From Halorubrum sp. 2020YC2 (lineage in GTDB: Archaea; Halobacteriota; Halobacteria; Halobacteriales; Haloferacaceae): a stretch of DNA of 64,000 nt. The notes below the pieces were generated by a model, which was not told the origin of the DNA, made no database searches, and worked only from the letters and a program-made list of their open reading frames with translations. Below, one piece after another: positions 17,579 through 62,497 of the stretch (positions are counted from its first letter, which is position 1; each line of letters begins with the position of its first letter). The translations under genes and the position numbers were made by a program. The DNA lies in NCBI RefSeq assembly GCF_018623055.1, contig NZ_CP076019.1, positions 930,001-994,000 of the forward strand, written 5' to 3'.

Positions 17579-17607
17579 CGGAGTTGCGATCGACTCCGAA
17601 CCGTTGT

Positions 17608-17861
17608 GCGGTGGCGCGTGCCGACGAGCGCCCGAAGGGCGCGAGTCGCACGCGCGAGGGAGTCGGTGGGCCGGAGCGAAGCGAAGGTCCACCGACGAGG
17701 CTGGGGAGGCGTGAGGCTGCGGCTGCGGTGCGGGGGCGGGACTCAAAGGGGCAGTCGGCTCCGGGAAGACGGCCGATGTAAGCACCGCAGCGAACGGAGT
17801 GAGTGAGGAGCGCAGCGAGGCCCTCGACCGGAGCCGACTGGGGCTTTGGCAGTGCTCGCGG
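17608..17861 (+). repeat. Structured intergenic repeat, copy A
   Basis: Element-sense plus strand, between the crotonase and hpt genes. Block order: GCGGTGGCGCGTGC; GAGGGAGTCGG; GGCTGGGGAGGCGTGAGG (17699-17716); GGGACTCAAAGGGGCAG (17738-17754); AAGCACCGCAG; CTGGGGCTTTGG (17838-17849). A 12-bp helix pairs AGTCGGCTCCGG (17753-17764) with CCGGAGCCGACT (17828-17839). A second helix pairs GTCGGTGG with CCACCGAC. One mini-hairpin, GCGCCC-GAA-GGGCGC, is at 17628-17642. This copy lacks the TTATAAA box at its 5' end and the tail is degenerate. Confidence 0.8.
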
Positions 17862-18005: not shown

Positions 18006-18575
18006 ATGGACCAGTTGCGGCAGTCGCTCCTCGACGCGCCGATCATCGAGAAAGGCGAGTACCAGTACTTCGTCCACCCGATCAGCGACGGCGTCCCGAT
18101 GCTCGAACCGGAGCTGCTCCGGGAGATAGTCATCCGGATCATCCGGAAGGCGGAGCTGGAGAACGTCGACAAGATCGTCACCCCCGCCGCGATGGGGATC
18201 CACATCTCGACCGCGCTCTCGTTGATGACCGACATCCCCCTCGTGGTCATCCGCAAGCGCCAGTACGGCCTCGACGGCGAGGTCCCGCTGTTCCAGGAGA
18301 CGGGCTACTCCGAGTCGGAGATGTACATCAACGACGTCGAGCAGGGCGACCGCGTGCTCGTCTTAGACGACGTGCTCTCGACGGGCGGCACGATGAAGGC
18401 CATCCTCGACGCGCTCACCGACGAGGTCGGCGCGGAGGTCGTCGACGTCGTCGCCGTGATCAAGAAGGCGGGCCCCAACGAGCTCGACGACACCGACTAC
18501 AACGTGAAGACGCTGATCAACGTCACCGTCGAGGACGGCGAGGTCGTGATCGTCGACGCCCAAGGCGACGAGTAA
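18006..18575 (+). CDS. hpt: Hypoxanthine/guanine phosphoribosyltransferase
   Basis: A 189-residue cytoplasmic PRTase that salvages purine bases with PRPP. The PRPP-binding loop [14 protein letters not shown] is clear, preceded by the flexible-loop region [22 protein letters not shown]. The N-terminal [19 protein letters not shown] is the pattern of the archaeal HGPRTase family, related to bacterial adenine and xanthine PRTases, so base specificity is not certain. It lies between repeat copies A (plus) and B (minus), whose 3' tails both point at it. Confidence 0.85.
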
Positions 18576-18625: not shown

Positions 18626-19047
18626 TTTATAAGTAGCCAACAACGGACCGGCGGTGAACACCTCCAAAGCCCCAGTCGCGAGGCGGGCGCACGCTCGCTG
18701 TCGCCCGAAAATCGGAGATTTTCGGGATGACGAGAGAGCTTCGCTCTCTCGAACCACGCTCCTCGTCACTCACTCCGTTCGTTCCTGCGGTGCTTGCGTC
18801 GTCATCAGAACGCGAAGCGTTCTGACTGGCTCACGAGAGCGAAGCTCTCGTGAACGCCTGCGCCCGCCTCGCGACTGCCCCTTTGAGTCCCGCCCCGCAC
18901 AGCGACTGCCCCTCACACCTCCCCAGCCTCGTCGGCCGGTCTCCGCGTCGCTCCGACCGGCCGACTCCCTCGCACGCGCTCCTCGCGGCCGCCGGGGGCG
19001 GCCACTCGGAGGCGCGCGCCGACCGCACCGCTACGTTCGTTTATAAA
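18626..19047 (-). repeat. Structured intergenic repeat, copy B
   Basis: Minus-strand orientation between hpt and the PfpI gene. The 5' TTTATAAA box is at 19040-19047 and the 3' TTATAA at 18627-18632. The P3 helix has perfect 18-nt arms (18674-18691 with 18859-18876), flanked by the CCAAAGCCCC/GGGGCAG-side blocks. A second helix pairs GTCGGCCGGTC with GACCGGCCGAC, a covaried version of copy A. Four perfect mini-hairpins lie in the P3 loop: 18704-18726, 18732-18750, 18806-18824 and 18832-18852, each with a 3-nt loop. Confidence 0.85.
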
Positions 19048-19117: not shown

Positions 19118-19795
19118 ATGACTGACGCGTTATTCGTCGTGAGCGAGGAAGGCTACTGGGCCGAGGAGTGTATCGAGCCGCTGACGACGCTCGAATCGGA
19201 GGGCGTCGACGTGACGATCGCGACCCCGTCGGGGTCGCCGCCGGTCGTCGACGAGCGCTCGCTGGACCCGGAGGCCGCGGGCGGCGAGGAGCGCGTCGCG
19301 GAGCTCCGCGAGGTCGACGAGGAACACCCCGGACTCAACGACCCCGAGCCGGTCGCGACCGTCGACGCCGCCGACTACGACGCCGTCGTCTTCCCCGGCG
19401 GTCACGGCACCGCGTGGGACGTGAATCAGGACCGCCACGCCCGCCAGCTGCTCCTCGACTCGGTCGCCGGCGAGGAGGGCGTCGCGCTGGTCGTCTGCCA
19501 CGCGGTCGGCATCCTCGCGTTCACGAACGAGGCCGACGGGACGCCGCTCGTCGAGGGGCGCTCTATCACGGGCTTCCCGAACGAGTGGGAAGAAGACATC
19601 GTCGACGAGAACGACCTGATGCCCGACGGGCGGAAGCTCCCGTACTGGGTCGAAGACGAGGTCGTCCTCGCCGGCGCCGACTTCGACGCCGAACTCGACG
19701 CCGACACCAGCGTCACCGTCGACGGCGACCTGATCACCGCGCGCGGCCCGGGCTCCTCCGTGGCCGCGGCCGCGACGCTGCTCGACGAACTGTAA
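19118..19795 (+). CDS. DJ-1/PfpI family (type 1 glutamine amidotransferase-like) protein
   Basis: A 225-residue cytoplasmic protein. The nucleophile elbow VVCHAVGIL holds the family Cys, followed by His; an upstream FPGGHGTAWD is the glycine-rich oxyanion strand and EEGYWAEECIEPL holds the conserved Glu near the N terminus. It matches the Hsp31/YhbO-like group that includes glyoxalase III and protein deglycase activities. Which reaction applies is not decided. ATG 19118 is set by the TATA box. Its last codons are the first unit of a 15-bp tandem repeat. Confidence 0.82.
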   Translation: MTDALFVVSEEGYWAEECIEPLTTLESEGVDVTIATPSGSPPVVDERSLDPEAAGGEERVAELREVDEEHPGLNDPEPVATVDAADYDAVVFPGGHGTAWDVNQDRHARQLLLDSVAGEEGVALVVCHAVGILAFTNEADGTPLVEGRSITGFPNEWEEDIVDENDLMPDGRKLPYWVEDEVVLAGADFDAELDADTSVTVDGDLITARGPGSSVAAAATLLDEL

Positions 19796-19870
19796 CTCGA
19801 CGAATCGCCACTCGACGAATCGCCACTCGACGAATCGCCACTCGACGAATCGCCACTCGACGGGCCGCGA
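19781..19870 (+). repeat. 15-bp tandem repeat after the PfpI gene
   Basis: Four perfect copies of CTCGACGAATCGCCA (19796-19855), flanked by degenerate copies on both sides. The first is CTCGACGAACTGTAA, the last five codons of the gene including its stop. The array therefore seems to have grown from the 3' end of the coding sequence. Confidence 0.85.
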
Positions 19871-25180: not shown

Positions 25181-25477
25181 TTATAAATGGAGAGCGCGGT
25201 GGCGCGCCTGCGAGCGGCCGCCACCGGCGGCCGCGAGCCAGCCCGCGAGGGACGCCGCGAACGCCCGGAGGGCGTGAGCGGCGAGGCTGGGGAGGTGTGA
25301 GGTGCGGGGCGGTGCGGGGCACGGGACTCAAAGGGGCAGTCGCGAGGGCGAAGCACGCCGCAGCAAGCACCGCAAGGAGCGAGTGAAACGAGCGACTGAG
25401 GAGCGCAGCAAGGCGCGCGAGCCGTCGCGACTGGGGCTTTGGAAGCCCCCACCGCACAAGCGTGATCAATTATAAAC
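25181..25477 (+). repeat. Structured intergenic repeat, copy C
   Basis: Plus-orientation element between the convergent MFS and aminotransferase genes. TTATAAAT box at 25181-25188; GGCTGGGGAGGTGTGAGG block; GGGACTCAAAGGGGCAG at 25323-25339. The P3 arms are AGTCGCGA (25338-25345) and TCGCGACT (25425-25432), followed by CTGGGGCTTTGGAAG. Mini-hairpins are at 25214-25234 (ACC loop) and ACGCCC-GGA-GGGCGT at 25261-25275. A TTATAAAC box ends the tail, and a second TTATAAG lies 30 bp further. The rest of the 650-bp gap holds nothing recognisable. Confidence 0.8.
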
Positions 25478-31831: not shown

Positions 31832-32236
31832 TTATAAAAGAGGGCGGTGGCGTCGCCGGCGGCTCTGCCGCCGGCTACAAACGGCGCGTAGCGCCGGCGA
31901 CAGCACGCGCGAGGGACGCGGCGAACGCGGGCGGCGAAGCCGCGAGCCGTGAGCCGCGAGGCTGGGGAGGCGTGAGGTGCTGTGCGGAGCGGTGCGCGGT
32001 GGGACTCAAACGGGCAGTCGCCGGCGGCTGTCACCGGGCGAAGCCCGGTTGCCAGAGGGACGGAGTCCCTCGCTGCCCGTGGCGCGTAGCGCCACGCTGC
32101 CGCGAGGACGAAGCACGGCGCAGCAGGCCGCGCGAGTCCTCGCGGCTGGGGCTTTGGAGGTGTTCACCGCCGAGACGTAGTCAACGATTTATATCCGAGC
32201 GGCTGGGGCTCTGGAGGTCTTCGCCGCTGATCCGCA
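31832..32236 (+). repeat. Structured intergenic repeat, copy D (two tail units)
   Basis: Plus orientation between the convergent cysK and CoA-binding genes. TTATAAA at 31832-31838, GGCTGGGGAGGCGTGAGG, GGGACTCAAACGGGCAG; P3-type arms GCCGCGAGGAC (32099-32109) and GTCCTCGCGGC (32136-32146). Mini-hairpins: 31855-31875, 31883-31895, 31931-31943, 32034-32048, 32055-32071 and 32079-32095. The tail CTGGGGCTTTGG (32146) recurs as CTGGGGCTCTGG at 32203, 57 bp later. The rest of the gap to 32333 is A+T-rich and featureless. Confidence 0.8.
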
Positions 32237-62046: not shown

Positions 62047-62497
62047 GTTTATAAGTGAACCTCTACCTCGTGGCTATCTTTTGATAACTCGTTGCTGGCG
62101 GATTTGCGTTGGGCACCTCTGAAGCCCCGGTCGCTCACTTATAAATAGCTGACAGCGGATCGGCGGCGAACACTTCCAAAACCCCAGTCGCTCCCTTTTA
62201 AATCGTTGCTGGCGGATCACCGGAGACCTCCTCCAAAGCCCCAGCCGCGAGGACAGCGCACACTCGTTGCGCTCCTCGCTCGTTCGCTTCGCTCCCTCGC
62301 TGCGGTGCTTACGTCGTCTGCGCTGTCCTCGCGGCTGCCCCTTTGAGTCCCGCCCCGCCCAGCACAGCACCGCAGCCTCTCACCTCCCCAGCCTCGTCGG
62401 CCGGCCTCCGCTTCGCTCCGGCCGCCCGACTCCCTCGCGCGTGCTGCTCGGCCGCAGGGCGGCCTCGCAGGCACGCGCCACCGCCTCATTTATAAAT
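62047..62497 (-). repeat. Structured intergenic repeat, copy E (three tail units)
   Basis: Minus orientation between convergent genes. TTTATAAA box at 62489-62496. The P3 helix has perfect 18-nt arms (62243-62260 with 62319-62336). Tail units begin at 62233, 62176 and 62119 on the plus-strand coordinate (rc CTGGGGCTTTGG, CTGGGGTTTTGG, CCGGGGCTTCAG), exactly 57 bp apart. Each is followed by an A+T-rich box (TTTAAAAG, TTATAAG). This is the copy with the longest tail. Confidence 0.88.

What the first reader, a model, noticed from the sequence alone, without database searches (positions are those of the whole stretch)
17738..17861. Compensatory P3 helix with a symmetric GGG/GGG internal loop in the repeats
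In copy A CAAAG-GGG-CAGTCGGCTCCGG pairs with CCGGAGCCGACTG-GGG-CTTTG. In copies B and E the arms are 18 nt, perfect and different in sequence (B begins AGTCGCGAGGCG, E begins AGCCGCGAGGAC). In C the arms are AGTCGCGA/TCGCGACT. Helix sequence changes while pairing is kept, yet the flanking CAAAG/CTTTG and GGG/GGG loop stay fixed in A, B, C and E. D has a shifted version (GCCGCGAGGAC/GTCCTCGCGGC). A second, independent helix (GTCGG.../...CCGAC) also covaries between copies A and B. This is the strongest evidence for selection on structure rather than sequence.
Basis: seen in the sequence. Interest (0 to 1): 0.8.

Follow-up and report, generated by a model that had tools for sequence, protein, structure and literature searches.

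The report
Foldable mosaic repeat of salt-loving archaea
The covarying hairpin belongs to a roughly 250-450 bp non-coding repeat that sits between genes in about 140 copies in this haloarchaeal genome and in related forms across the order; its stems keep changing sequence while one strand keeps the same fold, so it looks like an undescribed, structured, probably mobile element.

Summary
The window is from a 3.06 Mb haloarchaeal (Halorubrum-like) genome with about 140 copies of the repeat. It is found in 49 of 52 genomes of the genus; a core with GAAAG/CTTTC or CAAAG/CTTTG occurs in 241 of 392 genomes of the order. In 239 distinct copies the first 13 P3 pairs are 92% Watson-Crick, G.U 111 against A.C 29. 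In an order-wide alignment 30 of 36 pairs show double changes; slid controls collapse. Features that palindrome repair would erase are conserved: the GGG/GGG loop and tandem G.A steps. The sense strand folds better than the antisense in 178 of 186 units. So one strand is selected as a fold; RNA or single-stranded DNA is not shown. Copies at orthologous sites are no more alike than paralogs: whole helices are swapped. Two copies 96% identical over 402 nt lie in unrelated flanks in a relative, so it moves or moved. No reverse transcriptase was found, and no Y1 transposase in one 69-copy genome. Closest in kind: Haloquadratum PATEs and pneumococcal BOX. Not in Rfam.

The parts
17606..17852 (+). 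Copy A, whole element without 3' tail (P1 + P2 + linker + P3)
17614..17655 (+). P1 hairpin of copy A (GCGCGTGC...GCACGCGC with an inner hairpin and a GA/GA tandem mismatch step)
   Evidence: fold; copies listed
17662..17696 (+). P2 hairpin of copy A (GTCGGTGGGCC...GGTCCACCGAC)
17697..17743 (+). conserved linker GAGGCTGGGGAGGCGTGAGG...GCGGGACT
17744..17848 (+). P3 of copy A: CAAAG/CTTTG, GGG/GGG internal loop, variable stem, conserved apex with tandem G.A steps
18665..19031 (-). Copy B (P3 with inserted small hairpins at 18665-18891, 5' module up to about 19031)
25196..25441 (+). Copy C
31844..32213 (+). Copy D, with hairpin inserts, damaged basal helix and one degenerate 3' tail repeat (57 bp further on)
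62177..62485 (-). Copy E plus its tail repeat at 62177-62190

Best explanation
The hairpin is the conserved core (P3) of a non-coding, modular, intergenic repeat that has spread through haloarchaeal chromosomes as a non-autonomous mobile element. What is copied and kept is defined by the fold of one strand: P1, P2 and P3, with a GGG/GGG loop and tandem G.A steps. Shown: copy number, order-wide distribution, fold, covariation, strand preference, intergenic position, persistence at orthologous sites with turnover of the sequence, near-identical copies in unrelated flanks, loop inversions and core deletions. Inferred: (1) a trans-acting protein, not identified, recognises the folded strand (ssDNA or RNA) and moves or protects it; (2) the arms diverge because ectopic conversion between copies exchanges whole helix modules and because G.U intermediates are tolerated, while misfolded versions are lost; (3) most copies are now inherited vertically with rare new insertions. 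Which nucleic acid is recognised is open.
For: About 140 copies in G000 and 4-185 in other genomes of the genus that have any, 0 for the reversed pattern in G000. Core in 241/392 genomes of the order and 63/95 genera. Covariation: 30/36 pairs with double changes, 525 double-change cells against 157 in shuffles and 100 or fewer in slid controls. P3 register taken from the ends only: WC 2853, GU 111, AC 29, other 114; control in tails, C>T 0.18 against G>A 0.14. Basal pair 2 over 52 genomes: A-T 1409, G-C 407, G.T 30, A.C 14. GGG/GGG kept in 279/285; tandem G.A columns 74-82 of 85. Sense folds better than antisense in 178/186. Mobility: 96.3% identity over 402 nt with unrelated flanks, differences concentrated in the P3 apex and largely compensated. 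Empty, filled and solo-tail states at orthologous sites. Intergenic in 76/78, downstream gene convergent in 49/77. Core deletions and collapsed copies.
Against: No autonomous partner was found: Y1 transposase is absent from G119, which has 69 copies, and no RVT_1 was found in 13 genomes. Genomes without copies do have Y1 transposase. No clean target-site duplication or sharp 3' boundary was established. In G000 the best pair of the 78 copies compared is only 93% identical, so activity there is old. Copies are nearly absent from plasmids and phages, unusual for an active mobile element. P2 shows no G.U preference (7 against 10), and my P1 register was too loose to use. Copies are related, so counts are not independent; most loci were collected through the GGGACTCAAAGGGG motif, so conservation of that motif is partly by construction.
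Confidence: 0.62

Rival explanations
1. A host-serving structured RNA (trans-acting ncRNA or 3'-UTR element) present in many copies; the fold binds a protein and affects RNA stability or termination.
For: Strong single-strand constraint and G.U preference. TATA-like box about 17 nt upstream of the 5' module in 44 of 71 copies. Long persistence at orthologous sites. Position often downstream of convergent genes.
Against: 0 to 185 copies in species of one genus; copy-to-copy duplication into unrelated flanks. The archaeal start expected about 25 nt after the TATA-like box would fall inside P1 and cut its 5' arm. P3-only relatives share no such box. Apex inverted or deleted in some copies. No expression data.
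Confidence: 0.22
2. Arms stay complementary only through DNA processes (palindrome birth, template-switch correction, inversion), with no selection on the fold.
For: Inverted apex copies and one copy with GGC/GCC in place of GGG/GGG show such events occur. P2 lacks G.U excess.
Against: GGG/GGG and several tandem G.A steps, not complementary, are kept across the order. G.U is about 4 times A.C in P3. Sense strand folds better than antisense in 178/186.
Confidence: 0.04
3. Degenerate ends or guide-RNA region of IS200/IS605 (TnpA/TnpB) elements, that is, PATEs in the strict sense.
For: PATEs in Haloquadratum are transposase-free, about 180 copies, with near-terminal palindromes, variable ends and core deletions (PMC3119063); similar traits are seen here.
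Against: The P3 model finds nothing at two loci with an IS200-type transposase. A genome with 69 copies has no Y1 transposase. No copy with an ORF inside among 261.
Confidence: 0.12

Closest known systems
PATEs of Haloquadratum walsbyi (PMC3119063)
   Same: haloarchaeal, non-coding, about 180 copies, palindromes, heterogeneous ends, core deletions, no transposase gene
   Different: defined by near-terminal palindromes like those of IS605 elements; no order-wide core with GGG/GGG loop and tandem G.A steps is described in the passages read, and no match to IS605-type loci was found here
BOX repeats of Streptococcus pneumoniae (PMC3049150)
   Same: intergenic, modular with optional inner modules, predicted stable fold, many copies, slow current movement, more often between convergent genes
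   Different: streptococcal, with boxA/B/C modules; here the stems themselves vary and covary, and the family spans an archaeal order
REP/BIME with RAYT transposase (own knowledge)
   Same: multi-copy intergenic hairpins with a strand sense
   Different: REPs are 20-40 nt with a GTAG-type foot and a Y1 transposase; here over 110 nt core, multi-hairpin, and Y1 is absent in one high-copy genome

Membership tests
PATE (palindrome-associated transposable element) | too short to code for a transposase | tested here: met
   261 of 270 distinct 5' modules have P3 within 500 nt, and none of the other 9 showed an ORF-bearing version
PATE (palindrome-associated transposable element) | palindromes near both ends related to IS605 ends | tested here: inconclusive
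   P1 and P3 lie towards the ends, but model R1 has no hit at two Y1-transposase loci; not an exhaustive test
PATE (palindrome-associated transposable element) | no terminal inverted repeats and no target duplication | tested here: inconclusive
   no inverted ends or duplication seen by eye in the near-identical pairs, but the 3' boundary is not sharp
BOX repeat | boxA-boxB-boxC modules | not tested
   no direct sequence comparison made; only the type of organisation is alike
REP / RAYT system | Y1 (RAYT-like) transposase in the same genome | tested here: not met
   Y1_Tnp absent in G119 (69 copies), present in genomes with none
SINE-type retroelement | reverse transcriptase available | tested here: not met
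   RVT_1 in 0 of 13 genomes, some control genomes positive
SRP-derived or other Rfam family | match to a curated covariance model | tested here: not met
   the genome's own SRP RNA lies elsewhere

The most novel reading that the evidence does not exclude
An order-wide class of multi-copy structured RNA in haloarchaea, with a new architecture (helices punctuated by tandem G.A steps and a GGG/GGG loop), that has a cellular function and diversifies by swapping whole helix modules between dozens to hundreds of loci.
Probability: 0.2. Interest if true: 0.87.

Novelty: new variant of a known kind. Interest (0 to 1): 0.62.

Why it matters
One undescribed foldable element occupies about 140 intergenic places in this genome and has relatives throughout the order. 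It offers a natural experiment with thousands of copies for separating compensatory evolution, gene conversion and palindrome repair. It should also be masked or annotated in haloarchaeal genomes and transcriptomes. If it is transcribed it would be one of the most numerous RNA families of the group; if it moves as a single strand, it points to an unidentified mobilisation system in archaea.

Tried and rejected
SRP/Alu-like origin: suggested by GCGGTGGCGCGTGCC, rejected because there is no Rfam match and the genome's own 7S RNA lies elsewhere and shows no obvious likeness. Bulge-helix-bulge intron: the loop is a symmetric 3x3 loop, not the BHB shape (own knowledge, read off the sequence). Retrotransposition: no RVT_1. 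REP/RAYT: Y1 not required. Virus or plasmid origin: phages none, 31 viral 15-mer matches with no convincing model hit, three plasmid records. Promoter of a discrete RNA: the TATA-like box is real but its spacing does not fit a transcript that contains all of P1. P1 strand test: my automatic register was unreliable and is not used. First attempt at the P3 register was off by one, corrected. Literature: no paper found that prints the core sequence.

Full report
WHAT IS THERE. The window is bases 930001-994000 of a single 3,063,515-base contig. The records found by exact match to the repeat are nearly all Halorubrum, and one genome of the same genus, G129, carries a contig of 247,617 bases, the length of a Halorubrum salinarum plasmid, so the genome is Halorubrum-like. 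Copy A of the finding is correctly described. CAAAG-GGG-CAG... and ...CTG-GGG-CTTTG are at 17744-17848. Around it is a longer element, on the sense strand: GCGGTGGCGCGTGCC - P1 - GCACGCGCGAGG - P2 - GAGGCTGGGGAGGYGTGAGG - linker - GGGACTCAAAGGGGCAG - P3 - CTGGGGCTTTGG - tail. In this genome the tail often consists of decaying copies of the 3' end with a TATA-like box at +30, +85 and +140.

COPY NUMBER AND SPREAD. GGGACTCAAAGGGGCAG with at most one mismatch occurs 140 times in the genome, 0 times when reversed. It occurs in 49 of 52 genomes of the genus, 4 to 185 times (counting the genus rows; the other rows are 0). The core GGGACTSAAAGGGGC occurs in 241 of 392 genomes and 63 of 95 genera of the order, again with almost no reversed matches. 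Outside the genus the base of P3 is GAAAG/CTTTC instead of CAAAG/CTTTG, and P1/P2 may be missing or replaced by other 5' sequences. Plasmids: three records with partial matches. Phage records: none. Viral contigs: 31 15-mer matches, one of which scores weakly with the model (E = 0.03).

THE FOLD. From the ends alone, without fitting, the first 13 P3 pairs in 239 distinct copies are WC 2853, GU 111, AC 29, other 114. Without pair 3 (counting from 0), which dominates, GU:AC is 66:26. A control in the tails gives C>T 0.18 and G>A 0.14, too small a bias to explain this. In an alignment of 85 copies from several families of the order, 91.4% of cells pair and 30 of 36 pairs have double changes. The covariation score is 0.471 against 0.151 in shuffles and 0.09 or less in slid versions. 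The apex is a run of two covarying Watson-Crick pairs alternating with tandem G.A steps (GA/AG in 74-82 of 85); by eye P1 and P2 have similar steps. The GGG/GGG loop is kept in 279 of 285 copies; the 3' GGG, which was not used to collect copies, in 283. The sense strand folds better than the antisense in 178 of 186 units with RNA parameters and 175 of 186 with DNA parameters. P2 shows no G.U excess (7 against 10). These data establish selection on a folded single strand for P3; they do not say RNA or DNA.

HOW IT EVOLVES. At two sites flanking one gene (window 18006-18575) most close relatives carry an element, while other species have none or only a solo tail. Copies at the same site in different species are 57-77% identical to the copy in the window, about the same range as paralogs in the genome (medians 66 and 70%, best 77-79%). 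Whole P1, P2 and P3 types recur across sites, so helices appear to be exchanged as modules. Basal pair 2 exists as A-T (1409), G-C (407), G.T (30) and A.C (14) in the genus, and some genomes have almost only G-C (for example G119, 55 against 3; G149, 68 against 2, summed by hand). Linkage within subfamilies contributes to this. In G105 two copies are 96.3% identical over 402 nt in unrelated flanks, and most of their internal differences sit in P3 and largely keep pairing. DNA-level events also occur: inverted apex (4 copies), one GGC/GCC copy, collapsed P3 copies and core deletions between G runs.

CONTEXT AND PARTNERS. 76 of 78 copies are intergenic by a simple GC3 gene finder; the downstream gene is convergent in 49 of 77. 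A TATA-like box lies about 17 nt before the 5' module in 44 of 71 copies, but a start about 25 nt further on would fall within P1. RVT_1 is absent from 13 genomes; Y1_Tnp is absent from one high-copy genome and present in genomes with no copies. No version with an internal ORF was seen.

WHAT IT IS MOST LIKELY. A non-autonomous mobile repeat whose fold on one strand is the conserved thing, similar in kind to Haloquadratum PATEs and pneumococcal BOX, but with its own order-wide core and an unknown mobilising system. Membership in PATE is not established, because the link to IS605 ends was not found. A cellular RNA function remains possible. Limits: copies are related, loci were mostly collected by motif, the pairing counts therefore overstate independence, and there are no expression data.

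Noticed in passing
window 19793-19862: A 15-bp tandem repeat (CTCGACGAATCGCCA, about four to five copies) directly after the stop of the ORF at 19118-19795.
   Followed up: no
3' tails of many copies, e.g. L060, L022, L048, L009, L013: Nearly identical head-to-tail 51-57 bp repeats of the element's 3' end, many with a TATA-like box, which become degenerate downstream; how they arise is unexplained.
   Followed up: partly
L260 and L269, and own-genome copies L005, L021, L069: A shared exchangeable module (GGAAGTCGCAGCCCGCGCAG...GAGCAGGAACGTCTTCC) sits in the linker in the genus of the window but inside P3 in another family.
   Followed up: no
P3 inserts, e.g. window 18680-18870, L049, L031: Small exchangeable hairpins with three-base loops that appear as GAA in some copies and TTC in others, as if flipped.
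   Followed up: no
L251: A copy interrupted inside GGGACTCA by what looks like an inserted element.
   Followed up: no
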